Below, one piece after another: positions 43,060-57,147 of a stretch of DNA of 64,000 nt. How positions within the stretch are numbered: position 1 is the first letter of the stretch; each line of letters opens with the position of its first letter. The notes under the pieces are model-generated. The model searched no databases and had not been told where the DNA came from. It saw nothing but the letters and a program-made list of their open reading frames with translations. The stretch covers positions 285,759 through 349,758 of the forward strand of contig NZ_KK366018.1 of NCBI RefSeq assembly GCF_000686805.1. Direction: 5' to 3'. Both the position numbers and the translations under genes were made by a program. This stretch comes from Bacillus sp. UNC41MFS5 (GTDB taxonomy: Bacteria > Bacillota > Bacilli > Bacillales_B > DSM-18226).

Positions 43060-44067
43060 ATGAGTAATTTAGATTTCTTAGAAATAAGCCGGAATTTTAA
43101 GAGTTATTATCGAGCCTTACGTGATGCCCATTATTATTTAAGGAATGATTCTGAATTAAGCCAAGAGGAATTACAAGCAGTTACAAAGGTATTAAGTAAA
43201 TTAATTTATGGATTTATTCGGATTAAAGGGATATCTTTCCGAGAAATGGACCGCGAGCAATTCGAACAAGAATTTAATCTATTTCATCAGGATTTTCTAA
43301 ATGTCATTCAAAACAGCGGAGAAAATAATGTAGATTTCGATCAATTCACTGCACTAATGGATGAAATAATTGGGATTGCCATAATGAGAACAATTGCTCT
43401 GGGAAAAATAGCGAAAGTAAAACAACAATCTTTATTTGAAGATGTTGAAGTAGATGAAGTACTTGAAGATGTTGAAGTAGATGAAGTACTTGATGATGTT
43501 GAAGTTGATGAAGTACTTGATGATGTTGAAGTTGATGAAGTACTTGATGATGTTGAAGTTGATGAAGTACTTGATGATGTTGAATTAGAATTAAGTAATG
43601 AAGATGAAAATAATGATGCTGTTGAGGAAATGGTTGATGATATGATTGAAGAAATTGAGGTAATTGATAAAACACAAGAGACAGTAGCTGAAGTTAAACC
43701 AATAAATAATACTTTGAGAACTTTTAGTACTGATTTTGGGGCTCTAAATAATGAAGTTGAAGATGAAACTATTACTTATGCAGGTAAAACTTTTAGTACT
43801 GAAGTTGAACCTCTAAATAATGAAGTTGAAGCTATCTTATATGAAATTGAATATGTGGAGGACGAACTGCCAGAACAGGTGAATGAAGTTCGAGTGGTCG
43901 ATGTGATAAATGAGGTTGAAAAGGTTAAAGAGGTTGAAAAGGCGGCTTTCACGCCTAAAAAAGTGAAAAATAATTTTATTTATGCGGCTCCAGTTGTGAA
44001 TCATTATTTTGAACCCGAAAGTAGTGACGAATTCCGTTTTAGACCTCGGAGGAGAAGAGATAGATAA
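43060..44067 (+). CDS. Acidic repeat-containing protein of unknown function
   Basis: 335 residues. The first 125 form a helical domain (LDFLEISRNFKSYYRALRDAHYYLRNDSELSQEELQAV). Five tandem copies of DVEVDEVLD then follow (residues about 128-172). After more Glu/Asp-rich sequence there is a second two-copy repeat (TFSTDFGALNNEVE / TFSTEVEPLNNEVE). The tail is basic (FRFRPRRRRDR). No signal peptide or membrane helix. Domain-plus-repeat-plus-RR tail is seen in some spore coat or envelope proteins, but I cannot assign it. The perfect DNA repeats predict length variation between strains. Confidence 0.75.
   Translation: MSNLDFLEISRNFKSYYRALRDAHYYLRNDSELSQEELQAVTKVLSKLIYGFIRIKGISFREMDREQFEQEFNLFHQDFLNVIQNSGENNVDFDQFTALMDEIIGIAIMRTIALGKIAKVKQQSLFEDVEVDEVLEDVEVDEVLDDVEVDEVLDDVEVDEVLDDVEVDEVLDDVELELSNEDENNDAVEEMVDDMIEEIEVIDKTQETVAEVKPINNTLRTFSTDFGALNNEVEDETITYAGKTFSTEVEPLNNEVEAILYEIEYVEDELPEQVNEVRVVDVINEVEKVKEVEKAAFTPKKVKNNFIYAAPVVNHYFEPESSDEFRFRPRRRRDR
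43441..43587 (+). repeat. 27-bp tandem repeat inside a coding region
   Basis: Five units of GATGTTGAAGTnGATGAAGTACTTGAn (43441-43575) plus a partial sixth. The 27-bp period keeps the frame and encodes nine residues. Confidence 0.9.
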
Positions 44068-44418: not shown

Positions 44419-45234
44419 TTAATAACCAGTACCTTGGCCGCCCGTTATAATCGCAATACTAGAACTTGCACCAATTCTTGTTGCTCCGGCTTGGATTAGC
44501 TTTCTTGCAGTATCTAAATCTCTCACACAGGCAGAAGCTTTAACACCCATTTCTGGACCGACCGCTTCACGCATAAGTTTAATGTCTTCAGCAGTAGCAC
44601 AGCCAGGGCCAAATCCTGTCGACGTTTTCACGAAGGCGGCTCCAGCCATTTTTGCTAGAATACAAGCTTTTTTCTTTTCTTCGATTTCAAGAAGGCCTGT
44701 TTCAATAATGACTTTTACTGGTGCATGACCATTCGCCGCTAATACAACACCTTCAATGTCTTTTTTCACTGTCTCAAAGTCGCCAGATTTTAGGGCACCA
44801 ATATTTATAACCATGTCGATTTCAGTGGCGCCATTTGCAATTGCGTCACGCGTTTCTGCACTCTTAACAAATGTGCTCGTTGCTCCAAGTGGAAAACCAA
44901 CAACGGTGGTAATCCCTACTCCAGAACCTTTTAATTCTTGGGCTGCTGTTGCAACCCAGTAAGGATTCACACAGACAGTGGCAAATTTATGTTCTTTAGC
45001 TTCTTCACAAAGCTTTACAATTTGGTCTTTGGATGCTTCAGGCTTTAAAAGTGTATGGTCAATCATCCGAGCCACAGAGGGCCCGGTAATAATCGATGAT
45101 GATGTTCCTTCTTTATATGTCACATTTCCAGAAGTTGAAGGCTTCACTTCTTTCAACGCTTCTTTATTCGTCAATTGCTGCATAATTTGATTCGTAATTT
45201 GTTCTACCAATGCTTCAATTTGCATCGTGCTCAC
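44419..45234 (-). CDS. deoC: BMC-associated deoxyribose-phosphate aldolase
   Basis: 271 residues, about 50 longer than ordinary DeoC. The extra N-terminus is an amphipathic helix ([18 protein letters not shown]) and a Ser/Thr/Gly linker, the architecture of a BMC encapsulation peptide. The aldolase domain starts near residue 52: [39 protein letters not shown], the Schiff-base Lys in [13 protein letters not shown] and [10 protein letters not shown] with the second Lys. Splits 2-deoxyribose-5-P into glyceraldehyde-3-P and acetaldehyde. Last gene of the shell operon; signature enzyme of the locus. Confidence 0.95.
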
Positions 45235-45243
45235 CCCACAATA

Positions 45244-45504
45244 TTATAATCGATCAACAATTCCGGCAATGACAGCATCGAAAGAACCATTAGGGTCTTC
45301 TAATATGTCTCTTGCCGATCCACCTTCTTCTAGAATCAGGACATAATCGCCAACACCTGCTGATAAACGATCGAAGGCAATCATCGCATCCCCACAATCC
45401 TTACCAGATGCGTCCACAGGGATGACAACCATAAGCTTTTTATTTTGATGACTTGGTGTTTTAATCGTTGATACGACATTTCCAACCACTTTTGCTAGTT
45501 TCAT
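45244..45504 (-). CDS. EutN/CcmL-type BMC pentamer (BMC-P)
   Basis: 86 residues: KLAKVVGNVVSTIKTPSHQNKKLMVVIPVDASGKD, FDRLSAGVGDYVLILEEGGSARDIL, and the AVIAGIVDRL end. This is the vertex-capping pentamer fold of bacterial microcompartments. One of three in this operon, located between a BMC-H gene and deoC; shares one base with the upstream gene. Confidence 0.93.
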   Translation of the reverse strand: MKLAKVVGNVVSTIKTPSHQNKKLMVVIPVDASGKDCGDAMIAFDRLSAGVGDYVLILEEGGSARDILEDPNGSFDAVIAGIVDRL

Positions 45505-45779
45505 TATTTTGCAACAGGAAGAATTTTCTCGATGTCTGAATGCGGTCTTGGAATCACGTGAACAGATAAGAATTCGCCGACACGCTGTGCTGCATCCGCA
45601 CCTGCTTCAGTTGCTGCCTTAACCGCACCAACATCACCGCGAACCATGACACAAACTAATCCGCCGCCTACATTTACTTTGCCTAGTAAAGTAACATTTG
45701 CTGCTTTTGTCATGGCGTCCGCTGCTTCAATTGCCCCTACTAAACCTTTAGTTTCGATCATTCCTAATGCGTTACTCAT
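45504..45779 (-). CDS. BMC-H shell hexamer protein
   Basis: 91 residues, one BMC domain: [77 protein letters not shown]. The pore loop region is VNVGGGL. Forms shell facets. Closely similar to the second BMC-H at 47466-47744, suggesting a duplication. It starts one base after the preceding BMC-P stop. Confidence 0.95.
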
Positions 45780-46067
45780 TTATTTTTCCTCCATTCGATT
45801 GGTCACATTATAGTAGTCGATGATTCCTAAGATTCCAGCATCTGATGGAACCAAATCTTTATTTAGCGGTAAGGATGATTCCTTGCTTTTTGCTAAGTAA
45901 ACAAGATCTCCTTCTCCTGATTGTCCAATCGTATCTATAGCCACAAGTGGTTTGCCTTTATCCTTCAATTGCTCATCTACTGGTTGGACAATCAGGAGCT
46001 TTAAACCTATTAAATTGTCATTTTTATGTGTACAGACCATATTTCCTATCACTTTGGCTACAAACAT
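45780..46067 (-). CDS. EutN/CcmL-type BMC pentamer (BMC-P)
   Basis: 95 residues: FVAKVIGNMVCTHKNDNLIGLKLLIVQPVDEQLKD, VAIDTIGQSGEGDLVYLAKSKESSLPL, DAGILGIIDYYNV. Second of three pentamer genes. It follows the RpiB-like gene after a 92-nt gap, the longest inside the operon, in which I see no hairpin. Confidence 0.92.
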   Translation of the reverse strand: MFVAKVIGNMVCTHKNDNLIGLKLLIVQPVDEQLKDKGKPLVAIDTIGQSGEGDLVYLAKSKESSLPLNKDLVPSDAGILGIIDYYNVTNRMEEK

Positions 46068-46159
46068 TTTTCAAACCTGCCTTTTTTTCTATATAACTCT
46101 GAGTTAAACTCTCCTATTTTTCTCTCTAAACTGTTTACGAGCGAATCTCTGATTTAGAC

Positions 46160-46618
46160 CTAATTCCGCCCCAGAAAACGGCTTTCGATTTCCATAATTT
46201 TCGTCACACGGCGATCATGACGGCCGCCTGCAAACTCTGTTTCCAACCAAGTCTTTACTAATAGTTTGGCAAGGCCTTCACCGATAAATTGACCGCCGAT
46301 AGATAATACGTTCGCATTATTATGCTCCTTACTGTTAATCACAGAGGATAGGTCCCAACATACCGCACCACGGACACCAGGTATTTTATTTAATACCATC
46401 CCGCTGCCAATGCCGACTCCATCAATCATAATGCCTACATAGTTATCATTCGTTGCTACCGTCTCGCCAACAAGAAAAGCGATATCTGGATAATCAACAG
46501 ATTCATTTGCTTTACAGCCATAATCTAAATATTCGTACCCTAATTCCGTTAAATAGGCCTTTAGCTTTTCTTTAAGTTCGTATCCACCATGGTCGCAACC
46601 TATCGCAACTTTTTTCAT
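46160..46618 (-). CDS. rpiB: RpiB/LacAB-family sugar-phosphate isomerase (Cys66 replaced by Asp)
   Basis: 152 residues of the RpiB/LacA/LacB fold: KKVAIGCDHGGYELKEKLK, CWDLSSVINSKEHNNANVLSIGG, FAGGRHDRRVTKI. In E. coli RpiB the catalytic Cys66 lies in ICGTGVG; here the same position reads IDGVGIG, so residue 66 is Asp. The Glu75-type base of mycobacterial RpiB is also not seen. Activity on ribose-5-P is therefore uncertain and another substrate is possible. No N-terminal helix for encapsulation. The ATG overlaps the TPI stop by 4 bp. Confidence 0.85.
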   Translation of the reverse strand: MKKVAIGCDHGGYELKEKLKAYLTELGYEYLDYGCKANESVDYPDIAFLVGETVATNDNYVGIMIDGVGIGSGMVLNKIPGVRGAVCWDLSSVINSKEHNNANVLSIGGQFIGEGLAKLLVKTWLETEFAGGRHDRRVTKIMEIESRFLGRN

Positions 46619-47454
46619 GATTTTTGTTCTCCTTTGGCAAATACATTGATAATTGCATCGAAGACGAGAGCATTTAAGCTCGCACCGCCAACCAGTACAC
46701 CATCAATATCTGGCATCGCACTGTATTCTGCAGCGTTCCTTTCATTCGCGGACCCGCCATATAAAATCGAAATACTTTCCGCTTTTTGACCTATTATTTG
46801 TTTTAAAACAGAACGAATGTAGGCATGTGTTTCTTGAGCCAGTTCTGCAGTAGCCGACTGCCCTGTTCCAATCGCCCAGACCGGTTCATAAGCAAGAATA
46901 AAATGGGCTGTATCAATATCCTTCAACGCACCGAAAAGCTGCTTAGATAAAACTTGTTCTGTTTGCAAAGCATTCTTTTGTCCTAACGTTTCACCGATAC
47001 AGATGATTGGAGTAAGCCTGGACTTGAGTGCTTGCTGAACCTTTTTGTTCACTAACTCGTCATCTTCAAAAGAATATTGTCTTCTTTCTGAGTGGCCAAT
47101 AATGACATATTCACAGCCCACATCCATCAGCATACTGCCAGATGTTTCCCCTGTATAAGCCCCTTTGTCGGCCCAGTGAACATTTTGACCGCCCAATCCA
47201 ATCGGTTTTCCAGATTGTTTGATCAATAAATGAGCCGGGTATAGCAGCTGGGTTGGTGGACAAATAACCACAGATACGTCATGACTGCTGTTTATTTTTT
47301 GAAAAAATTCAGCGGTCTCATTTAGGTTTTTGTTCATTTTCCAATTAGCAATCACATAGGTTTGCCGATCACTTTGGAGCTGCAAGCCGCCTAGATTTTG
47401 ACCAATGGCATCTCTGACAAGATTTTTAATATAGCTTTCAATGGATTGTTCCAT
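46615..47454 (-). CDS. tpiA: Triose-phosphate isomerase with BMC-type N-terminal extension
   Basis: 279 residues against about 250 for ordinary TPI. The extra ~30 N-terminal residues form an amphipathic helix (MEQSIESYIKNLVRDAIGQNL) like BMC cargo tags. The enzyme is intact: VIANWKMNKN (Lys), IIGHSERR (His), LAYEPVWAIGTGQSA (Glu and the flexible loop) and LYGGSANERNA. It interconverts glyceraldehyde-3-P and DHAP. Flanked by a BMC-H gene and the RpiB-like gene. In this context it would draw off the glyceraldehyde-3-P made by DeoC (inference). Confidence 0.93.
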   Translation of the reverse strand: MEQSIESYIKNLVRDAIGQNLGGLQLQSDRQTYVIANWKMNKNLNETAEFFQKINSSHDVSVVICPPTQLLYPAHLLIKQSGKPIGLGGQNVHWADKGAYTGETSGSMLMDVGCEYVIIGHSERRQYSFEDDELVNKKVQQALKSRLTPIICIGETLGQKNALQTEQVLSKQLFGALKDIDTAHFILAYEPVWAIGTGQSATAELAQETHAYIRSVLKQIIGQKAESISILYGGSANERNAAEYSAMPDIDGVLVGGASLNALVFDAIINVFAKGEQKS

Positions 47455-47465
47455 TTACATTCACC

Positions 47466-47744
47466 TTATTCTGCTTTTGGTAAAATACCTTCTACATCGC
47501 CGTTAGGACGTGGAATCACGTGTACTGATAGAAGATTTCCTACGCGCTGTGCTGCTTCCGCACCTGCTTCAGTAGCCGCTTTTACTGCACCTACATCCCC
47601 ACGGACCATAACAGTCACGATGCCTGCGCCTACTAATTCTCTGCCAACTAATGTAACGTTTGCTGCTTTAACCATCGCATCTGCTGCTTCAATGGCACCT
47701 ACCAAACCTTTTGTTTCAATCATACCTAAAGCTTCTTGACCCAT
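47466..47744 (-). CDS. BMC-H shell hexamer protein (possible longer form to 47843)
   Basis: 92 residues from ATG 47744, preceded by GAGGAGG at 7 nt. BMC domain: [68 protein letters not shown]. The frame remains open upstream to an ATG at 47843 with its own AGGTG site. That would add 33 charged residues ([20 protein letters not shown]). Both starts may be used, giving a tagged and an untagged shell protein. Confidence 0.93.
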
Positions 47745-47857
47745 TTTATTTCCTCCTCTAGTAATCTCTAATTTTGGTTTTTCTTGATTTTTCAGTTGCT
47801 CTTCTTGTGAAGTGACTGTTTTTTCTTCTTTTGCTTTCGACATATCCTAACACCTCA

Positions 47858-49291
47858 CTATATGATTCTTAATCCATCTACTAAAACGCAGCGGCGCTGA
47901 CGTGTAAATGTTTTCGCACTGGTTAATCCTTCACCAGTCGGTCCCGCAATGGTCAGCGTGGTAAATCCTTCACTTTCAAAGCCTAATCCGGATACAGATG
48001 GACCATTTTTCACAAAAATCGTTGCTTGAATTTCTTGTGCCATCTTGGTTAGATTTGTAATATTTTGCGAGTGCATAATCGCTGTGTGCCGGTTGCCTTT
48101 TTCCGCAATAACAGCAAGTTCGATTGCTCGATCTACGTCAGGCACTCTGACGATTGGTAAGATCGGCATTAACATTTCTGTCATTACCAATGGGTGTTCC
48201 TTTGTGGTTTCAGCGATAATTAATTTTACATTTGGACTTGCCTGAATACCCGCTGCTTGTAAAATCACCGATGCGTCTTTACCAATGAAGTCTCTGTTTG
48301 GATAAAACTTATCGTTCTTCTTTACAAGTACTTTCTCAAGCAGTTTTTCGAATTGAAAGCCTTTAAGTTCGATTGCTCCGTTTTTGACCATTTCTGCTTT
48401 CAGAGAATTGGCTACCTTGTCAACAACAAATATTTCTTTTTCAGCGGTGCATAATACGTTGTTATCAAAGCTGGCACCCTTGACAATATCAGCAGCGGCC
48501 TTTGAGATAATGGCTGTCTCATCCACGACAACTGGTGGATTTCCCGGTCCAGCGGCAATGACTTTTTTACCAACTGCCATCGCTGCTTTTACAACAGGTC
48601 CTCCTCCAGTTACCACGAGCGCGTCCACCTGCGGATGATTCATGACTTGTGTTGAAGTTTCAAGATTAGGTGCTGCCACAGTTGTGAGTGTGTTTTCAGG
48701 TCCACCCGCAGCGACAATTGCTTGGTTTAAAAGCTGAAGCGTTTGAATCGAAACACGTTTCGCACTTGGATGTGGATTGTAAACAACCGTATTGCCAGCG
48801 GCTAGTAACGAAATGGAATTATTGATGACCGTCGCGGCTGGATTGGTTGAAGGCGTGATGGATCCAAATAAGCCAATCGGTGCATACTCAACAAGTGTCA
48901 AACCATCATCACCCGAATAAGCAGTGCTGACTAAGTCTTCAATACCAGGTGTTTTATTCGTTGCCAAAAGAATTTTCGCAATCTTATCTTCCACTCTGCC
49001 TAAACCTGTTTCCTCGACAGCAAGCTTTGCTAGCTCTTCGGCATGCTCACGGCTAACCGCTCGCATGTTCTCAATCATTTTTTCTCTGATCGATACTGGA
49101 AGTTTACGAAGCTTTTCCCAGGCCAGTCTAGCTGCGGCAGCTGCTTCATCAACCGTTGTATACACGCCATCTCCTAACTTGACATCATCCTGTGGAATGA
49201 CAGCGTCGGTATTGTTAGCTATTTGGTTTTGGCCAAGTTGACTAAGAACCTGTTCAACCATTTTTTTGATATCGCTTTCATTCAGTTGCAA
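47858..49291 (-). CDS. CoA-acylating aldehyde dehydrogenase of the PduP/EutE type
   Basis: 477 residues. The N-terminal helix (MQLNESDIKKMVEQVLSQL) matches a BMC encapsulation peptide, followed by a linker. Catalytic core: EYAPIGLFGSITPSTNPAATVINN, VVTGGGPVVKAAMAVGKKVIAAGPGNPP, and the nucleophile in ASFDNNVLCTAEKEIFVV. Converts acetaldehyde (or propionaldehyde) with CoA and NAD+ to the acyl-CoA. Sits between a BMC-P and a BMC-H gene. No alcohol dehydrogenase gene is present for NADH recycling. Confidence 0.94.
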   Translation of the reverse strand: MQLNESDIKKMVEQVLSQLGQNQIANNTDAVIPQDDVKLGDGVYTTVDEAAAAARLAWEKLRKLPVSIREKMIENMRAVSREHAEELAKLAVEETGLGRVEDKIAKILLATNKTPGIEDLVSTAYSGDDGLTLVEYAPIGLFGSITPSTNPAATVINNSISLLAAGNTVVYNPHPSAKRVSIQTLQLLNQAIVAAGGPENTLTTVAAPNLETSTQVMNHPQVDALVVTGGGPVVKAAMAVGKKVIAAGPGNPPVVVDETAIISKAAADIVKGASFDNNVLCTAEKEIFVVDKVANSLKAEMVKNGAIELKGFQFEKLLEKVLVKKNDKFYPNRDFIGKDASVILQAAGIQASPNVKLIIAETTKEHPLVMTEMLMPILPIVRVPDVDRAIELAVIAEKGNRHTAIMHSQNITNLTKMAQEIQATIFVKNGPSVSGLGFESEGFTTLTIAGPTGEGLTSAKTFTRQRRCVLVDGLRII

Positions 49292-49293
49292 GG

Positions 49294-49593
49294 TCAGTTC
49301 CCTCCTTTATTAAAGGTTAAGGTCCCTTGGATTTCAATTTGATCAACAATCCCTACAATTGCTGCGTCAACGGGGACACCGTTTGTTATTTCTGTTTGTC
49401 TTGCCGAACTTCCGCTGACAAGTAAAACCACTTCGCCTACACCTGAGCCAACTGTATCTATGGCAACGATCGGTTTTCCGTCCTCTTCGATGCTCTGCAT
49501 ATCAAGCGGCTGAACAATCATCAGTTTTTTCCCTTTTAATTTTTCTGCTTTAGTGGTGGAAACAATCGAACCTACCACTTTACAAATGATCAT
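49294..49593 (-). CDS. EutN/CcmL-type BMC pentamer (BMC-P)
   Basis: 99 residues: IICKVVGSIVSTTKAEKLKGKKLMIVQPLD, VAIDTVGSGVGEVVLLVSGSSARQTE, DAAIVGIVDQIEI. Third pentamer gene, following the flavoprotein gene with a 4-bp overlap and 2 nt before the aldehyde dehydrogenase. Confidence 0.93.
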   Translation of the reverse strand: MIICKVVGSIVSTTKAEKLKGKKLMIVQPLDMQSIEEDGKPIVAIDTVGSGVGEVVLLVSGSSARQTEITNGVPVDAAIVGIVDQIEIQGTLTFNKGGN

Positions 49594-50342
49594 AACGTCC
49601 CTCCTTTCGAGGAATCGGTCGATTTAATTTGAATCTTTAGTTCTCTTGCCAGATCTTTTGCTGAAGGAGTGACCTGGCTTTTTTCAGGAACCTCAATTTC
49701 ATTAAGTCCTTCCTGATAAGCTCTTTCTATATGTTTTGCTAGAATGAGAGATTGCTTATCAAGGTAGGCTGCATATTGCTCATCGACTGTTTTAATCAAT
49801 TTACTGAGCGGTACCCACTTGACCTGATCCGTTTGGATCCTCCTAATGTAGGACTGGATCCGTTCCTGGACAGTATGCGGGGCATGGATTTGTTGGTACA
49901 CATTTGGTTCAACACCGTTATTGGCGATGACAATCGGTTTACCAAGTAATTGATATTGGATAGCCACCCACACTGCTATCTCATCATCCACCGTTAATGC
50001 TAGTTTTGAAAGCAATCCATACGATGCTTGAGGAATAACGAGAACAGATGATTGATCAATAAGAGCTCTCATATCCTGATGCGACAAATCCTCTATCAAC
50101 AAGCATGAAAGCCCTTTCATTTGTTCCTTTAGAGGAAGCCATTCTTTTGTTATTAGCCACGTTACGTTATATGTATCCAACAGCGGGGTAACCGCTTCCA
50201 AAATAGTCGTTGGATTGGAAGAATGATAACCTAATAGGATCGCAATCGGAGCATCCGTCTTCGTGTCCATATTCTCTTTTAGGTAGGCTTCCACTACCTG
50301 CTGGACAAGCAGTTTAACCTGCGTTTTAACATCCACCAGCAT
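49590..50342 (-). CDS. BMC-associated flavoprotein-like protein (PF02441-like)
   Basis: 250 residues. The N-terminus (VDVKTQVKLLVQQVVEAYLKEN) is an amphipathic helix. The middle looks like a flavodoxin-type/HFCD fold: IAILLGYHSSNPTTILEAVTPLLD, SSVLVIPQASYGLLSKLALTVDDEIAVWVAIQYQLLGKPIVIANNGVEP. The C-terminus is helical. Homologous flavoproteins occur in several BMC loci with unknown redox or cofactor roles. The family call is by pattern and moderately sure. Overlaps PduL and BMC-P genes by 1 and 4 bp. Confidence 0.65.
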   Translation of the reverse strand: MLVDVKTQVKLLVQQVVEAYLKENMDTKTDAPIAILLGYHSSNPTTILEAVTPLLDTYNVTWLITKEWLPLKEQMKGLSCLLIEDLSHQDMRALIDQSSVLVIPQASYGLLSKLALTVDDEIAVWVAIQYQLLGKPIVIANNGVEPNVYQQIHAPHTVQERIQSYIRRIQTDQVKWVPLSKLIKTVDEQYAAYLDKQSLILAKHIERAYQEGLNEIEVPEKSQVTPSAKDLARELKIQIKSTDSSKGGTL

Positions 50343-51001
50343 TACTCCCCACCCACTTGATTTGGACTTATGGCGGCAATAATTTCACCCAATTGTCCAT
50401 TTTTGATTCCAGCTGCATTGGCTTCATCCAGGTCAATATGCATTTCAAGCTTGTATTTAGGAGAAATACGGATTAAGACATTTGAGAAAATGATTCCGCG
50501 GACTCCATCCACTTTTACTTGAACAAGGTCCCCGTCCTGAACGCCAAATGTTTCACCATCACTCGTGTGCATATGAATATGGCGAGCAGCACAGATCAAG
50601 CCTTCATGAATGGAAATTTGCCCCCGTGGTCCTTGGATGGTTATCGGTTCTGACCCCTTAATATCCCCAGAATTACGAATTGGCGGCTTGACTCCTAGGG
50701 TAAAACCATCAAATAATGATACCTCTGCCTGTGTAATGCCTCTAGCAGGTCCGAGGACACGAACATTTTGTATTCTCCCTTTCGGACCGATAAGTGTGAC
50801 TGTTTCCTTTGCTGCAAATTGGTTGGGCTGTGACAAGTCTTTTAACTTAGTTAAATCGTAGCCGCGTCCAAACAACCGTTCAACATGTTCAGGGGATAAA
50901 TGAATATGCCGGTTAGATGCTGCAATGGGAACTGTCATAGATTTCTTAAGAGAGTTTTTGACAACCTCTTCGACGAGCTCTCTAATTTTATCTTTATTCA
51001 T
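50342..51001 (-). CDS. pduL: PduL-type phosphotransacylase
   Basis: 219 residues from ATG 51001, which overlaps the regulator's end by 8 bp. An N-terminal helix (NKDKIRELVEEVVKNSLKK) fits an encapsulation peptide. Two PF06130 domains follow with paired metal-binding His: ASNRHIHLSPEHVERLF and CAARHIHMHTSDGE, then GVRGIIFSNVLIRISPKYKLEMHIDLDEANA. Converts acyl-CoA and phosphate to acyl phosphate and CoA inside the BMC, recycling CoA for the aldehyde dehydrogenase. Acetate kinase would make ATP outside. Confidence 0.95.
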   Translation of the reverse strand: MNKDKIRELVEEVVKNSLKKSMTVPIAASNRHIHLSPEHVERLFGRGYDLTKLKDLSQPNQFAAKETVTLIGPKGRIQNVRVLGPARGITQAEVSLFDGFTLGVKPPIRNSGDIKGSEPITIQGPRGQISIHEGLICAARHIHMHTSDGETFGVQDGDLVQVKVDGVRGIIFSNVLIRISPKYKLEMHIDLDEANAAGIKNGQLGEIIAAISPNQVGGE

Positions 51002-51956
51002 TAAGGTGCTCACCCCCAAAATCGAGTAATGCCCTGGCAGTATACTGATCGGTAATAAGGACATTGGCATGAAGCCCCTTTAACGCTCCATAGATTCCTT
51101 CGACTTTTTTGTTACCTCCTGCAATGAGGATGCCGTATTCTTTTTCCGCTAAATGTGAGAGTTCGATTCCAATTGTCCGATCATTTAATGTTTGATGACT
51201 AATATGCCCATTGATATCAATAAATCTAGAACAAATATCACCGACAGTATAATTTTCCCTTAGTATTTCAATGTCGCTGTCTAAAAAATATCCCGCATGC
51301 ATGAGTGTTGATTGTTCGCCAGGATCCCCAACTGTAAAAATGGCAATATTGGCCTGTTTGCCCAGTTCCAATATTCTTTTTACATGTCGGTCTGCTATGA
51401 TTGCCTGCTTGACAACAATGTGGTCTACGACGGCAGGTACCTGCAGAAAATGTGGGATTGTCTGAAATGCATGAGCAAGACCATTAACGATTTCTGATGC
51501 ATACGTATTTGATTCTGAGTAACTCACCCCACCATTTAGCTGGACAATTGTTACATCCTTTACATTCTTAGGTTGAATTTGTTTCACTAGTTGATATAAA
51601 GTTGTCCCCCAGGTAATCCCAATCGTATCGCCGCTATTGACAATCTTATATAAATAATCTGCGGAAACCTCCCCCAGTTTCACCTTGATAAGTTCATCCT
51701 TATATTCGGGAATCGATGCGACAATGCAATCCTTTAATTGAAACTTTTCCTTGATTTGCAAAGCCAATTCCTGAACGTCTTCGGCGGGATCGCATATTTT
51801 TATATGGACTACTCCTTCTTCAACGGCTTGAACCAGAAGCCTGGAGACGGTGGGGCGGGAAATACCTAACTTCTTCGCGATTTCCTGTTGGCTGTAGTCT
51901 AATTGATAATACATTTTAGCTACTTCCACCAAGCGCGAAATCCTTTCATCCGCCAT
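50994..51956 (-). CDS. deoR: SorC-family regulator, DeoR of the Bacillus type
   Basis: 320 residues. N-terminal HTH: LDYSQQEIAKKLGISRPTVSRLLVQAVEEGVVHI. Sugar-phosphate-binding domain: GDTIGITWGTTLYQLVKQI, VTIVQLNGGVSYSESNTYASEIVNGLAHAFQTIPHFLQVPAVVD, FTVGDPGEQSTLMHAGYF and ILIAGGNKKVEGIYGALKGL. This follows B. subtilis DeoR, which represses dra-nupC-pdp and responds to deoxyribose-5-P. It is the first gene of the BMC operon, so autoregulation and induction by deoxyribose-5-P are expected. Confidence 0.92.
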   Translation of the reverse strand: MADERISRLVEVAKMYYQLDYSQQEIAKKLGISRPTVSRLLVQAVEEGVVHIKICDPAEDVQELALQIKEKFQLKDCIVASIPEYKDELIKVKLGEVSADYLYKIVNSGDTIGITWGTTLYQLVKQIQPKNVKDVTIVQLNGGVSYSESNTYASEIVNGLAHAFQTIPHFLQVPAVVDHIVVKQAIIADRHVKRILELGKQANIAIFTVGDPGEQSTLMHAGYFLDSDIEILRENYTVGDICSRFIDINGHISHQTLNDRTIGIELSHLAEKEYGILIAGGNKKVEGIYGALKGLHANVLITDQYTARALLDFGGEHLNE

Positions 51957-52263: not shown

Positions 52264-53619
52264 TTATTGTATCTTCTGGAGGGATTCGGTAAGTGTTTTT
52301 ACAAGGAAGTTTAGATCCACCTGTTTGATTGTTAATGGTGGGGCCAGGGTTAACACATTATTGTATCCAGCTACGGTAGCCCCGTTTTTTCCAATAATAA
52401 TCCCTTCCTGCTTACAGTTGGCGATGACTTGATTGACAAGGTCATTAGAAAGTGGTTCCTTGGTACGCTTATCCTTTACTAATTCAATTCCTATCAGTAA
52501 CCCTTTCCCACGAACATCGCCAACATATGGGTGGTCTTGCAAAAGGTTCCTCAAATCATTTAAAAGCTTTGCACCTAAATCACGAGAACGGTCAAATAAA
52601 TTTTCGGTTTCCATAATCTCAAGATTTTTTAAAGCGAGCGCACATGCTGCTGGATTCCCGCCAAATGTATTGACATGACGGAAGTAATCATATTCTTCTG
52701 AGCCTTTAAATGCTTCGTATATGTCTTTGCGGACGGCCGTTGCGGAAAGCGGCAGATAGGCACTGGTAATTCCTTTTGCCATGGTAATGATGTCGGGCTT
52801 CACGCCATAGTTCATATAACCGAACGGCTTACCGGTACGGCCAAACCCGCAAATAACCTCATCAACGATGAGCAGTGCCCCGTGTTTTTCACATACCTCT
52901 TTTGCGGCTTTCATATAACCATCCGGCGGAATGAGGACACCGCCGCCCGTAATAATCGGTTCCATAATCATGGCGGCAATCGTTTCACTTAACTCCCATG
53001 TCATCGTCCGATCGATTTCTTTTACCGAGGATAGTTCCTTGGGATCGTTGACATTTATATCATCCCGGTAGGAATCAGGTGGTGAGACATGGATAAAACC
53101 TGGTGCAAGCGGTTCGTACTTGTACTTTCGTTGTGCCTGGCCGGTCGCGGCGAGTGCCCCCATCGAATTACCGTGATAAGCACGATAGCGGGAGACGATT
53201 TTGTAACGGTTAGGTTCACCCTTTTGCTGGTGGTACTGCCTAACGATTTTAAAGGCGGTTTCATTAGCCTCAGAACCGCTGTTAGAGAAAAAGATAACAT
53301 AGTCATCGCCTAACATTTTGTTCAACTTTTCTGCGAGTTTTATGGCTGGAACATGGCTTTGTGATAGTGGAAAATAGGCCATTTCCTTCAGTTGTTCATA
53401 GGCTGCTTCAGCTAATTCGGTCCTTCCATAACCAATATTCACACACCAAAGGCCGGCCATCGCATCTAAATACCGGTTTCCATCAGCATCAGTTACCCAA
53501 GAACCCTCTGCCTTTGAAGCAACTAACGTCGCGTTTGGATTATACGGCTTCATCGAGTGCCATACATACCTATCATCCTGTTCCAACAAAGTTTCCTGCG
53601 ATCGACTTGTTTGAACCAT
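52264..53619 (-). CDS. Class III omega-aminotransferase (beta-alanine/beta-aminoisobutyrate type)
   Basis: 451 residues, PLP fold type I: WVTDADGNRYLDAMAGLWCVNIGYG, FFSNSGSEANETAFKI, YRAYHGNSMGALAATG, LLIVDEVICGFGRTGKPFGYMNYGVKPDIITMAKGITSAYLPLSA with the PLP Lys in MAKGIT, and RHVNTFGGNPAACALALKNLEI. In this operon the likely job is transamination of beta-alanine and beta-aminoisobutyrate, giving malonate and methylmalonate semialdehyde for the MmsA-like enzyme. GGAGGGA precedes the ATG. Substrate assignment rests on context. Confidence 0.9.
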   Translation of the reverse strand: MVQTSRSQETLLEQDDRYVWHSMKPYNPNATLVASKAEGSWVTDADGNRYLDAMAGLWCVNIGYGRTELAEAAYEQLKEMAYFPLSQSHVPAIKLAEKLNKMLGDDYVIFFSNSGSEANETAFKIVRQYHQQKGEPNRYKIVSRYRAYHGNSMGALAATGQAQRKYKYEPLAPGFIHVSPPDSYRDDINVNDPKELSSVKEIDRTMTWELSETIAAMIMEPIITGGGVLIPPDGYMKAAKEVCEKHGALLIVDEVICGFGRTGKPFGYMNYGVKPDIITMAKGITSAYLPLSATAVRKDIYEAFKGSEEYDYFRHVNTFGGNPAACALALKNLEIMETENLFDRSRDLGAKLLNDLRNLLQDHPYVGDVRGKGLLIGIELVKDKRTKEPLSNDLVNQVIANCKQEGIIIGKNGATVAGYNNVLTLAPPLTIKQVDLNFLVKTLTESLQKIQ

Positions 53620-53673
53620 CTTCTTCCCTCCATTACTTATACTTATTAGTGCATCTACCTAATTAGATAACTA

Positions 53674-53817
53674 TCTAGCTCCAGCACCCAGCGGCTAGTG
53701 GACTTCGCTCTTCGCCCTACGATAAGTCAACATCGAATCGCTTTCGCTCTTCGTGTTTCCTTTATCTCGGTTGAAGCGCTCCAGTCCCTACGCCGCTAAA
53801 CGGGTGCTTCCGCTTTT
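53674..53817. repeat. Interspersed hairpin-forming repeat abutting the mmsA stop
   Basis: TCTAGCTCCAGCACCC at one end and CGGGTGCTTCCGCTTTT at the other pair through AGCACCC/GGGTGCT. The middle is GC-richer than the surroundings and contains TCGCTCTTCG-like blocks twice. This matches a class of non-coding repeats often seen in Bacillus intergenic regions. It lies inside the operon between mmsA and the aminotransferase and reaches the mmsA stop codon. Confidence 0.6.
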
Positions 53818-55282
53818 ATAATTCAAACCGTGAGGTAATCATTTTCTTTCGTGTATAGAAATTTACTCCGTCTTTTCCGTTTACATGCATATCACCATAG
53901 AAGGAATCCTTCCAGCCCGAGAATGGGAAGAATGCCATAGTTGCTGGCACGCCAACATTAATACCGAGCATTCCTGCTTCTGCTTCTTCGCGGAATTGAC
54001 GGATGGCTTTAGCATTGTTGGTATAAATGGTTGCACCATTGCCAAACTTTGATTTTCGGATATATTCCAATCCTTCATCTAAATTATTAGCACGAAGTAA
54101 GCTTAATACCGGTGCAAAGAGTTCTTCTTTCGCGATGAACATTTCCGGTGTAACATGATCAAAAATAGTAGGACCTAAGAAATTTCCTTCAGGCAGTTCA
54201 TCCATCTCTCTGCGTCCATCCCTAATTAAGTCAGCACCTTCTTCAAGCCCTTTTTCGATATATCCAAGAACTTTTTCACGATGTTCCTTGCGGATAATTG
54301 GTGTTAATAGCACCTCATCATCCATACCGTTTCCAATGATTAATTCATCCGCTTTTTTCTTTAGCGCAACTACGAATGGTTCGTTATCACCGACAACTAC
54401 GACCGCACTACAAGCCATACAGCGTTGCCCCGCACTTCCAAACGTGGAACTGATAATATGCTGGACAGCCTTATCCATATCGGCGTCTGGCATAACAATA
54501 TGATGATTTTTTGCACCAGATAATGCTTGAACCCTTTTACCTTCCGAAGCAGCTCGTTGATAAACATACTTGGCAACTGGCTGTGATCCTACAAATGAAA
54601 TCGCCGCAATATCCTTATGCTCAAGTAAGCCATTGACGACATCATGGGCACCGTGGACCACATTTAACACGCCTTTAGGTGCACCAGTTTCCGCAAACAA
54701 CTCTGCTAAACGATTAGCTAATATTGGCGTACGTTCTGATGGTTTGAGCACAAATGTGTTTCCACAGGCAATCGCAAGCGGGAACATCCAAAGAGGGACC
54801 ATCATCGGAAAGTTAAAGGGTGTGATCCCGCCGACAACTCCTACAGGGTAACGGAACATTTCAGAATCAATATCCTCGGCAATTCCCGATAACGATTCCC
54901 CCATCATTAACGTTGGCGCACCAGAAGCAAATTCAACACACTCGATTCCGCGCTGTACCTCCCCGTACGCTTCTTTAAACGCCTTTCCATTTTCTAAAAC
55001 AATTAATTTTGCTAATTCTTCATGGTTTTCAGTTAACAAATGGTGATACTTAAAAAGAATTCTTGCTCTTTTTGGAACAGGGACTTTTTTCCACTCTTTT
55101 AACGCCGCTTTTGCTGCTGTCACCGCAAGATCTACATCTTCCTTCGTTGACACTGGGACCTTGGTTAGGAGTTCATTTGTGGCTGGATTTGGAACATCCA
55201 GGGTTTGGATGCTACCTGCGCTAACCCATTCACCATTAATAAAATTTTTTAAAACAGACGTATCCTTTTTTGTTGCAGTCAT
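53816..55282 (-). CDS. mmsA: CoA-acylating methylmalonate-semialdehyde dehydrogenase (MmsA/IolA)
   Basis: 488 residues. [69 protein letters not shown] and the active-site Cys in [15 protein letters not shown] are specific to the MmsA/IolA group. It oxidises malonate semialdehyde to acetyl-CoA and methylmalonate semialdehyde to propionyl-CoA with CO2 release. It is the last step of beta-alanine or beta-aminoisobutyrate breakdown here, downstream of a PucR regulator gene. AGGAGG precedes ATG. Confidence 0.94.
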
Positions 55283-55437
55283 ATATATTAACCTCCTAAT
55301 TTATATCTCTTTTTATGAAATTTTCTAATAATATAAACCTTCTAAACTCATTTTCTCGTATCCAAAGCATGCTTTCATTAGACACTTTGTGAAATGAGGC
55401 AGGGCATTTCTTTGACGATATGAGCAACTATCAGCCA

Positions 55438-57069
55438 TTATTCTAGTATTCGGTATTTATTATGGTTCATACTGGATTGGGATGATGTTAAATAATCTTG
55501 TACTAGCAGCATAAATTCGATGGCAACTCGTTTTTCATGTTCCATAAAGTCTTCACCGAGAATGCTTTCCAGTTTTTGCAAGCGATGATACAGTGTTTGC
55601 CTGACAATAAAAAGTTTGCTTGCTGCCTCCTGTTTTGAGCCATTGCACTCTAAATAAACCTTTAACGTCTCTAACAACTTGCCATTATATTTCTGATCAT
55701 ATTGAATCACTGGCTGTAAATATTCTGCAGCAAATTCTTGCAGATTGATATGTTTACTCATTTGCGAGATCAGCCGATATAAATGCAAATCTTCATAAAA
55801 ATAATAGTCATCTTTATTGGACATCTTTTGCTGAATTCGCTGAGTTTCTTTTGCTGTTTGATAACTTTTATGTATTTCATTTAAATTCCCGCTAAAACTT
55901 CCAGCAGCAATCATGATTTTCGCGGAACATTGTTTTCTAATAAACTCTGATTCAAGTATGGATTCAATTGCTGTTTTCATTCGTTCCTTTACATTCTTTT
56001 TCGCCCGGTTGTTTACAAGAATGAACGTTATTTCATTTCTTTTTTCAACAGAAAACACTGTAAAACCATTCTGTTCAAGGACCGAACGAAATAATAGTTT
56101 TAGATACGTTACATCTTGTGTGATTTTCTCTTTGAGGGGGATAAGCCTTGTAATTAAGACTACAGCTTCATTGGATTTTGTTTTGACCCGATTCTGCGCA
56201 AAATATTCACTAATACTTTCGGGGGAATGTTCACCTTCAAGCCAGCCATACAACCACTCAAACTCCTCGACACGCTTTTTTTCTTCGACATACATATCCC
56301 GTAATAAGTGCTGGGCTAACGCAGTAGCAGTTCGATCTAAAATCAATACATCGTATTCACTGATGGGTAGATTTTTAGAATAGATGAATAACTCCGCACA
56401 TTCTTGCCCAAATAAGAAAATAGGTTGGGAGGCAATGTATTCACATGAGTCTGTTTTACATGCTTTGATCTGGTGAATGATTGTTTCTTGTTCGAGTAGG
56501 TTGATGTTTGGAATAAATTCAAAGTCCTTATTTTTCAAACGGAAAATAATTTGTAAATCCAGAGAAGAATACATACATTTTAGTATATCTTCATAACTTT
56601 CAATCGTTAACAGTCGCTTATTCAGGCTTTGGGAGTAATTTTCTAAATCAGATATCTTCTGGTATTGCTGATTAATAATTATTGAGTGGATGTCTTGGGT
56701 GATTTGTACAAACGGAACTTCCTTTGAAAAAACGATGATGGGAAATTGATGCTCATTAGCAACTTCTATGACTTCGACAGGAATCTCTGTCATGTATGTT
56801 CCCATTTCAATACATAAGCCTGCAGCCTGGTTATCAAGAAATTCTTTTACCATCGAAACAAATAAGTCCGTATTCTCCCTCCAAGCAACCCCTGTTGAAA
56901 GTATAAGTTCATTTCCGTTAAGAAGATTACGGATACTCGTGGCTTCGACAACATGAACCCATTTGACAAATCGTTGAATACCTTTTTCCCCAGCAATAAC
57001 ATGTGCTTGTTCAAAATTCTTTCGCTTTAAGATATCTGCCACTGTTAAATGAAAATGGTCTTTGATCAT
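55438..57069 (-). CDS. PucR-family transcriptional regulator
   Basis: 543 residues from ATG 57069, preceded by AAGGAG; an upstream in-frame start has no site. N-terminal PucR domain (HLTVADILKRKNFEQAHVIAGEKGIQRFVKWVHVVEATSIRNLLNGNELILSTGVAWRE), a GGDEF-like middle region, and a C-terminal PucR HTH (LLETLKVYLECNGSKQEAASKLFIVRQTLYHRLQKLESILGEDF). Members activate purine, pyrimidine or amino-acid catabolic operons. Position between dihydropyrimidinase and MmsA genes points to a pyrimidine-responsive activator; the effector is inferred. Confidence 0.88.
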   Translation of the reverse strand: MIKDHFHLTVADILKRKNFEQAHVIAGEKGIQRFVKWVHVVEATSIRNLLNGNELILSTGVAWRENTDLFVSMVKEFLDNQAAGLCIEMGTYMTEIPVEVIEVANEHQFPIIVFSKEVPFVQITQDIHSIIINQQYQKISDLENYSQSLNKRLLTIESYEDILKCMYSSLDLQIIFRLKNKDFEFIPNINLLEQETIIHQIKACKTDSCEYIASQPIFLFGQECAELFIYSKNLPISEYDVLILDRTATALAQHLLRDMYVEEKKRVEEFEWLYGWLEGEHSPESISEYFAQNRVKTKSNEAVVLITRLIPLKEKITQDVTYLKLLFRSVLEQNGFTVFSVEKRNEITFILVNNRAKKNVKERMKTAIESILESEFIRKQCSAKIMIAAGSFSGNLNEIHKSYQTAKETQRIQQKMSNKDDYYFYEDLHLYRLISQMSKHINLQEFAAEYLQPVIQYDQKYNGKLLETLKVYLECNGSKQEAASKLFIVRQTLYHRLQKLESILGEDFMEHEKRVAIEFMLLVQDYLTSSQSSMNHNKYRILE

Positions 57070-57147
57070 TTGGCTCTCCTTAGAAAAATATGAACAGAAT
57101 ATTGCTTGAAAAAGGATTGGCCTTGCAACCAATCCTTTCATTTATTT

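What the first reader, a model, noticed from the sequence alone, without database searches (positions are those of the whole stretch)
44419..51956. Deoxyribose-phosphate microcompartment with an apparently targeted triose-phosphate isomerase
The operon holds two BMC-H, three BMC-P, DeoC, an acylating aldehyde dehydrogenase, PduL, TPI, an RpiB-like protein, a flavoprotein and a DeoR-type regulator. It fits the known sugar-phosphate-utilising BMC class. Five proteins (DeoC, TPI, AldDH, PduL, flavoprotein) begin with an amphipathic helix. TPI is about 30 residues longer than normal with an intact active site. I infer that TPI pulls the unfavourable DeoC reaction by removing glyceraldehyde-3-P as DHAP inside or at the shell.
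Basis: partly seen in the sequence, partly recalled or inferred. Interest (0 to 1): 0.72.

Follow-up and report, generated by a model that had tools for sequence, protein, structure and literature searches.

The report
Deoxyribose microcompartment with targeted triosephosphate isomerase
A soil Bacillus relative carries genes for a tiny protein-walled compartment that probably breaks down DNA sugar, in which a common sugar enzyme (triosephosphate isomerase) has gained a probable address tag and another enzyme has lost its usual catalytic residue, hinting at a different job.

Summary
Confirmed. Window 44419-51956 (- strand) is a sugar-phosphate-utilising (SPU) microcompartment operon under a B. 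subtilis-type DeoR. Its TPI is a dedicated paralogue with intact catalytic motifs and an N-terminal helix plus linker resembling an encapsulation peptide. TPI in an SPU locus was noted once before (Axen 2014); here it recurs in three other lineages (25 loci) without the extension. The 'pull on DeoC' is plausible but untested.

More surprising, the RpiB-like protein belongs to one clade of 68 sequences from SPU and SPU-like loci, with Asp where RpiB has catalytic Cys66, mostly without Thr68, but keeping His99. All 44 canonical RpiBs checked keep Cys and Thr. Deoxyribose-5-phosphate has no 2-hydroxyl, so aldose-ketose isomerisation is impossible; I propose that this protein opens its ring for DeoC. 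New variant of a known kind.

The parts
50994..51956 (-). DeoR, SorC/DeoR-family regulator (B. subtilis DeoR type)
   Evidence: NF053881 431.9 bits against cut-off 420; PF04198
52037..52100 (-). Putative DeoR operator: CAAATGTTCAATT and ATTGAACAAATGTTAAC upstream of deoR
   Evidence: ATGTTCA or its reverse complement in 20 of 21 upstream regions against a shuffled mean of 1.15, maximum 6 (pattern chosen); B. subtilis operator ends CATATGTTCAA (PMC11229326, passages)
50342..51001 (-). PduL phosphotransacylase, N-terminal helix MNKDKIRELVEEVVKNSLKK
   Evidence: PF06130 2.5e-76; start chosen by reading the sequence
49590..50342 (-). Flavoprotein-fold protein with N-terminal helix 5-25
   Evidence: AF2 model and Foldseek to DmrB, PPCDC, UbiX, EpiD; TIGR02536 below its cut-off
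49294..49593 (-). BMC-P shell pentamer 1
   Evidence: PF03319
47858..49291 (-). Acylating aldehyde dehydrogenase (TTG start), N-terminal helix
   Evidence: NF011927 657.8 bits
47466..47843 (-). BMC-H1, long form with a 33-residue, Lys-rich N-terminal tail
   Evidence: PF00936 from residue 38; an in-frame open tail in all 21 Bacillales-type loci
47466..47744 (-). BMC-H1, proposed short form from an internal ATG; AGGAGG at 47752-47757
   Evidence: AGGAGG before the internal ATG in 21 of 21 Bacillales-type SPU loci (17, 4)
46615..47454 (-). TPI with EP-like N-terminal extension (helix residues 3-20 = 47395-47448)
   Evidence: PF00121 from residue 33; AF2; conservation
46160..46618 (-). RpiB-like protein with Asp66 and Val68 in place of catalytic Cys and Thr (Asp66 codon 46421-46423)
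45780..46067 (-). BMC-P shell pentamer 2
   Evidence: PF03319
45504..45779 (-). BMC-H2 shell hexamer
   Evidence: PF00936
45244..45504 (-). BMC-P shell pentamer 3
   Evidence: PF03319
44419..45225 (-). DeoC deoxyribose-phosphate aldolase, N-terminal helix (GTG alternative start at 45234)
   Evidence: TIGR00126 265.3 bits

Best explanation
The operon builds an SPU metabolosome that burns deoxyribose-5-phosphate from DNA or deoxynucleosides, and is induced through DeoR by dR5P. DeoC, AldDH, PduL, the flavin-fold protein and a dedicated TPI paralogue are drawn to the lumen by N-terminal encapsulation-peptide-like helices. DeoC yields glyceraldehyde-3-phosphate and acetaldehyde; AldDH and PduL turn acetaldehyde into acetyl-phosphate and recycle CoA; the luminal TPI turns G3P into DHAP, which leaves. 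At steady state luminal G3P is then about flux/(23 x exit rate) instead of flux/(exit rate) (equilibrium constant near 22, recalled), so DeoC is less back-driven and a reactive aldehyde is removed. Shown here: gene content, conservation, extension, intact TPI motifs, operator-like element. Inferred: luminal location, pull, export of DHAP.
For: Extended TPI only in this operon: 17 of 17; 20 of 20 genomes with three or more BMC-P matches have it; 0 of 17 other BMC loci have TPI. Same-genome canonical TPI, 16 of 16, starts 8 residues before NWKM. The 21 BMC TPIs form one group (support 92/80, 93% of 200 bootstrap trees) outside the canonical Bacillales-type TPIs. NWKM, YEPVW, YGGS and the His/Glu of GHSE are present in 21 of 21 (L126 reads GHSEVR). 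Helix plus linker in the model. TPI is also found in SPU loci of three other lineages. DeoR-operator element in 20 of 21.
Against: None of 25 SPU TPIs from other lineages has the extension at its best-supported start, so luminal targeting is not general to SPU. None of 11 SPU loci in the phylum of L020 has TPI, so TPI is dispensable there. BMC TPI diverges faster than canonical TPI (67% against 85% mean identity, 120 of 120 pairs of 16 genomes), which could mean relaxed constraint. Amphipathicity statistics are weak and the model's helix has pLDDT 63-65. A canonical TPI is present anyway (61 of 61 relatives), so an inner one helps only if G3P exit is slow.
Confidence: 0.62

Rival explanations
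1. The extension is not a lumen address. TPI stays in the cytosol or at the shell's outside, and the helix serves oligomerisation or core assembly.
For: PduE has an aligning extension that does not target cargo (PMC12108088, passages); hydrophobic moments barely exceed shuffles, not at all in L130 and L131; 25 of 25 SPU TPIs of other lineages lack it.
Against: The same kind of helix precedes four other proteins of the operon; an extension is kept down to TPIs 36-45% identical to the window's; absent from 16 of 16 same-genome canonical TPIs.
Confidence: 0.2
2. TPI is in the operon only for dosage: extra cytosolic capacity to burn triose phosphate from DNA sugar, without a compartment role.
For: TPI recurs without an extension in other SPU lineages, where a cytosolic place is the simplest reading.
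Against: Relatives keep a canonical TPI (61 of 61), and the operon copy is a separate lineage with an extension.
Confidence: 0.15
3. The RpiB-like protein is still an isomerase, using Asp66 as base on another sugar phosphate, so the compartment handles more than dR5P.
For: Asp can act as a base; M. tuberculosis RpiB uses a carboxylate, Glu75 (PMC4783025, passages). Six Asp-type proteins keep Thr68, and a Cys-type RpiB sits beside the Asp type in 7 loci, so pentose phosphates may be handled there.
Against: In 62 of 68 Asp-type sequences Thr68, which moves the proton from O2 to O1, is also lost; operator element and DeoC point to dR5P, which has no O2.
Confidence: 0.27
4. The RpiB-like protein is a non-catalytic structural or regulatory part, for example a dR5P-binding scaffold.
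For: Catalytic base lost in all 68 Asp-type sequences; His134, probable counterpart of a proposed ring-opening base, is Tyr in 9 of them.
Against: Asp9, His10, His99 and Arg137 are kept in all 68, and it is well conserved in the Bacillales-type loci (72-91% to the window).
Confidence: 0.2

Closest known systems
SPU (sugar phosphate utilisation) metabolosomes, SPU1-7 (Axen 2014 PMC4207490; Sutter 2021 PMC8217296; passages of both)
   Same: DeoC-type pfam01791, pfam02502 RpiB type, AldDH, PduL and shell genes; incomplete core, no alcohol dehydrogenase
   Different: Bacillales-type form with two BMC-H, three BMC-P, no BMC-T among the operon genes; TPI with EP-like extension in 21 of 21 loci. Axen reported TIM in one Atribacteria locus and no extension in the passages I saw; the Sutter text has 0 occurrences of 'triose' and 'pfam00121'.
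Ribose-5-phosphate isomerase B (E. coli RpiB, PDB 1nn4; best PDB match 3he8)
   Same: Same family by sequence; Asp9, His10, Tyr43, His99, Arg133, His134, Arg137 kept in the window protein
   Different: Cys66 is Asp and Thr68 is Val; belongs to an SPU-specific clade
B. subtilis DeoR with dra-nupC-pdp operon (PMC11229326, passages)
   Same: Regulator above the equivalog cut-off and an ATGTTCA operator element
   Different: Stands at the head of a compartment operon with its own DeoC
PduB of the Pdu compartment (PMC12108088, passages)
   Same: Shell protein with a functional N-terminal extension; that PduB is also made in a short form is recalled
   Different: BMC-H1 here is a single-domain hexamer protein with a Lys-rich tail and an embedded AGGAGG site

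Membership tests
SPU metabolosome | BMC-H and BMC-P shell genes | tested here: met
   PF00936 twice, PF03319 three times
SPU metabolosome | pfam01791 DeoC-type aldolase and pfam02502 RpiB type (shared by all seven subtypes) | tested here: met
SPU metabolosome | AldDH and PduL in the locus | tested here: met
SPU metabolosome | Assignment to one of subtypes SPU1-7 by shell-protein clades | not tested
SPU metabolosome | Forms a closed shell with enzymes inside | not testable with these tools
   needs microscopy or purification
Triosephosphate isomerase | Catalytic motifs NWKM, GHSE, YEPVW, YGGS | tested here: met
   21 of 21 BMC TPIs of the Bacillales type; 20 of 21 match all five patterns used, L126 reads GHSEVR for GHSERR
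Encapsulation peptide | 15-20 residue amphipathic helix joined by a flexible linker (definition from PMC8217296) | tested here: met
   Predicted helix 3-20 (pLDDT 63-65) and linker 22-27; amphipathicity only modest
Encapsulation peptide | Sufficient to bring cargo into a shell | not testable with these tools
   needs a fusion experiment
Ribose-5-phosphate isomerase B (as an active isomerase) | Catalytic base Cys66 and Thr68 (E. coli numbering) | tested here: not met
   Asp66 and Val68 in the window; Asp66 in the whole SPU clade, Thr68 lost in 62 of 68. The Glu75 position of the M. tuberculosis type was not aligned.
B. subtilis-type DeoR regulator | NCBIfam equivalog cut-off and operator element | tested here: met
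   431.9 against 420 bits; ATGTTCA in 20 of 21 upstream regions
HFCD/UbiX-like flavoprotein | Fold | tested here: met
   Foldseek to DmrB, PPCDC, UbiX, EpiD, E 3e-6 to 1e-4
HFCD/UbiX-like flavoprotein | Pfam flavoprotein family or proven FMN binding | tested here: inconclusive
   No Pfam family above cut-off; FMN binding untested

The most novel reading that the evidence does not exclude
The SPU RpiB-like protein is a compartment-specific ring-opening catalyst for deoxyribose-5-phosphate. It keeps His99, needed for full rate in RpiB and in M. tuberculosis proposed to protonate the ring oxygen, plus other active-site residues, and has dropped the Cys66 base and (in 62 of 68 sequences) Thr68, which serve the enediol step that a 2-deoxy sugar cannot undergo. 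It would hand open-chain dR5P to DeoC inside the small lumen, where spontaneous opening of few molecules would limit flux, while luminal TPI drains the other end.
Probability: 0.35. Interest if true: 0.8.

Novelty: new variant of a known kind. Interest (0 to 1): 0.62.

Why it matters
SPU is one of the commonest microcompartment types (over 280 loci in 26 phyla, PMC8217296), and no title listed in my ten paper searches was an experimental study of one. A luminal TPI would be a glycolytic enzyme recruited into an organelle by a small tag, and the Asp-type RpiB questions the published reading that this protein is of the type that isomerises ribose-5-phosphate. Both are testable with single purified proteins.

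Tried and rejected
It still gave 3 loci of 80 with BMC genes (L012, L020, L056).

Hydrophobic moment as a test of EPs: too weak to carry the claim. A first operator pattern (ATTGAAC or GTTCAAT) was not clearly enriched (4 against 1.1 expected, shuffled maximum 6). The ATGTTCA element was counted only after I had looked at upstream sequences, so its enrichment is partly post hoc, though it equals the end of the published operator.

Idea that TPI arose by duplication of the canonical Bacillales-type TPI: not supported by the tree. Idea that TPI solves NAD+ recycling: rejected, TPI uses no NAD; recycling remains unexplained. Idea that all SPU TPIs are targeted: not supported (0 of 25 outside the Bacillales type).

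Literature: ten searches, of which I saw the listings, and passages of five papers (PMC4207490, PMC8217296, PMC4783025, PMC11229326, PMC12108088). None of these showed text on an extended TPI in SPU or on loss of Cys66 in SPU RpiB. Searches listed only part of their matches; subscription papers and preprints are not in that library.

Limits: the window's own genome is not held. Many of the 20 loci are close relatives (nine TPIs in one shallow clade), so counts are not independent events. I fetched 17 non-SPU BMC loci from 15 of the 45 other BMC-P genomes, and 60 regions chosen by me; 6 of these 60 are under 8 kb (L161, L164, L170, L173, L181, L208), so absences there are weak.
Full report
1. 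What is there. On the - strand, 51956 to 44419, lie twelve genes in one direction with short or no gaps: deoR, pduL, a 250-aa protein, BMC-P, AldDH, BMC-H, TPI, RpiB-like, BMC-P, BMC-H, BMC-P, deoC. The closest named proteins to this TPI come from Neobacillus and Bacillus. The regulator passes the NCBIfam cut-off for the Bacillus DeoR. Upstream of deoR, ATGTTCA or its reverse complement occurs in 20 of 21 loci (L126 lacks it) against a shuffled mean of 1.15 and maximum of 6; it equals the end of the B. subtilis DeoR operator, whose reported effector is deoxyribose-5-phosphate (PMC11229326, passages). The pattern was picked after a first pattern had failed.

2. The TPI. The match to Pfam TIM starts at residue 33. 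AlphaFold2 on 24 sequences gives helix 3-20 (pLDDT 63-65), linker 22-27 under pLDDT 50, then a confident barrel. Among 397 genomes drawn from one order (unnamed in the output; Bacillales-type by my reading), 17 have a TPI matching from residue 1 or 2 at E <= 1e-67. All 17 lie between BMC-H and the RpiB-like gene of the same operon, and 0 of 14 canonical TPI loci (1.5 kb flanks) have BMC genes beside them. Searching the same 397 genomes for BMC-P instead gave 65 genomes, 20 with three or more matches. All 20 carry this operon with TPI, and all 20 plus the window have an extension, the shortest (L131) of 25 residues by the count. Three of these 20 were found through BMC-P and not through TPI, so the two searches check one another. 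Seventeen other BMC loci from 15 genomes have no TPI, DeoC or RpiB-like match.

3. Controls for the extension. In 16 of the 17 genomes the canonical TPI was fetched; it starts 8 residues before NWKM in 16 of 16, and a third TPI copy in one genome (L255) has no extension either. The tree puts the 21 BMC TPIs in one group (92/80, so under the tool's own 95/80 mark; 93% of 200 bootstraps) outside the canonical ones. Mean pairwise identity is 67% for BMC TPI cores and 85% for canonical ones, lower in 120 of 120 pairs. Catalytic motifs are kept in 21 of 21 (L126 reads GHSEVR). Amphipathicity by itself is modest: window TPI 0.47 against a shuffled mean of 0.31, fraction 0.054; 6 of 21 TPIs fall under 0.05; L130 and L131 are no better than shuffles.

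4. TPI in other SPU loci. Of 60 further BMC regions, TPI occurs in 17 of 20 from the phylum of L056, 5 of 20 from the phylum of L012 (Atribacterota) and 1 of 20 from the phylum of L020 (Oscillospiraceae record); 0 of 11 regions with both DeoC and RpiB-like matches in that last set have it. With L012 and L056 this makes 25 TPIs (L164 repeats L020). None has a helix-length extension at the start that a ribosome-binding site supports; in a few (for example L020, L056, L191, L194) the frame stays open further upstream without such a site. Four catalytic patterns match in 25 of 25; a fifth, for the loop VGGASL, fails in 9. The tree needs at least two changes for these outside TPIs on its starred branches, so TPI was probably recruited more than once, but deep support is limited. 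Axen 2014 had noted TIM in one Atribacteria SPU locus and used it in naming the class (PMC4207490, passages).

5. The RpiB-like protein. By the mechanism summarised in PMC4783025 (passages), Cys66 (E. coli numbering) is the base at C2, Thr68 moves a proton from O2 to O1, and His99 is needed for full rate; its counterpart is proposed to protonate ring oxygen O4, with another histidine (His138 there, probably His134 here) taking the O1 proton. In the window protein Cys66 is Asp and Thr68 is Val; Asp9, His10, Tyr43, His99, Arg133, His134 and Arg137 stay. Of 90 sequences long enough to score, 68 have Asp66, all in BMC loci, and 22 have Cys66: 14 canonical copies from genomes with the operon, and 8 in BMC loci, 7 of these beside an Asp copy (L197 is the exception). 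The Asp type is one group (97/75; 98% of bootstraps; the tool warns of few columns). Thr68 is lost in 62 of the 68 and kept in six, all from loci with a second, Cys-type copy. His99 is kept in all 68, but His134 is Tyr in 9, all from the phylum of L056, which speaks against a uniform ring-opening site. Controls: 14 of 14 canonical RpiBs in genomes with the operon have Cys and Thr (loci were held for 14 of 18 non-SPU matches), and 30 of 30 from genomes without BMC-P matches (loci for 30 of 53 matches).

6. What this suggests. Deoxyribose-5-phosphate has no hydroxyl at C2, so an aldose-ketose step on it is chemically impossible. DeoC works on the open-chain aldehyde (recalled). A protein that keeps ring-opening residues and drops enediol residues would fit a ring-opening role. 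A fusion of aldolase and isomerase in Marinimicrobia was reported by Axen, which fits consecutive steps. In Atribacterota the RpiB-like protein itself carries a 33-40 residue N-terminal extension in 14 of 17 sequences at the start I picked, while TPI there has none; in the Bacillales type it is the reverse. That the Bacillales-type RpiB-like protein has no tag is a point against its being luminal there.

7. TPI mechanism. With an equilibrium constant near 22 for DHAP over G3P (recalled), TPI lowers luminal G3P about 23-fold at equal flux and equal exit rates. This matters only if triose phosphates leave the shell slowly. The step from 'tag and active site' to 'pull on DeoC' is inference.

8. 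Other parts. The 250-aa protein models as a flavoprotein of the DmrB/UbiX/PPCDC/EpiD fold; no match to it was found in L131. No alcohol dehydrogenase is in the operon; Axen 2014 says that loci lacking it regenerate or acquire cofactors in unknown ways (passages). Whether the flavoprotein is that missing part is open. BMC-H1 has an in-frame N-terminal tail and an AGGAGG site before an internal ATG in 21 of 21 Bacillales-type loci (17, 4). Of five outside loci printed (L056, L151, L156, L169, L192) only L192 shows something alike: AGGAGG before the ATG with about 22 open codons upstream but no ATG of its own in them. This looks like two translation products in the Bacillales type.

9. Verdict. 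The extended TPI is a Bacillales-type variant of a known compartment kind; the Asp-type RpiB across SPU loci is, as far as my searches show, undescribed and may be the more important finding.

Noticed in passing
46160-46618 and BMC loci L112-L208, L012, L056: SPU RpiB-like proteins carry Asp at the catalytic Cys66 position in one group of 68 sequences; 44 of 44 canonical RpiBs checked do not.
   Followed up: yes
47744-47843: BMC-H1 has a Lys-rich tail and a strong internal ribosome-binding site before a second ATG, conserved in 21 Bacillales-type loci; probably two shell-protein forms.
   Followed up: partly
P0122, P0134, P0146: TPIs of 293-295 aa labelled Promethearchaeota, Heimdallarchaeota and Hodarchaeales begin with EP-like helices (read by eye), which would hint at SPU compartments in Asgard archaea; no genome context was available.
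   Followed up: partly
L012, L169, L171-L173, L176, L178, L180, L182-L186, L188: In Atribacterota the RpiB-like protein, not TPI, has an N-terminal extension (14 of 17 sequences) with a short hydrophobic pattern; the tag seems to differ in its carrier between lineages.
   Followed up: partly
L189, L190, L191, L194, L208: BMC loci with two RpiB-family genes, one Cys and one Asp type, and no DeoC match in the stretch fetched.
   Followed up: no
43060-44067: ORF with tandem acidic repeats (DDVEVDEVL) beside the operon.
   Followed up: no
52264-57141: Aminotransferase, CoA-acylating methylmalonate-semialdehyde dehydrogenase and a 567-aa ORF not scanned; the first two had no match in the 20 relatives' regions L112-L131, so they are probably not part of the compartment system.
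   Followed up: partly
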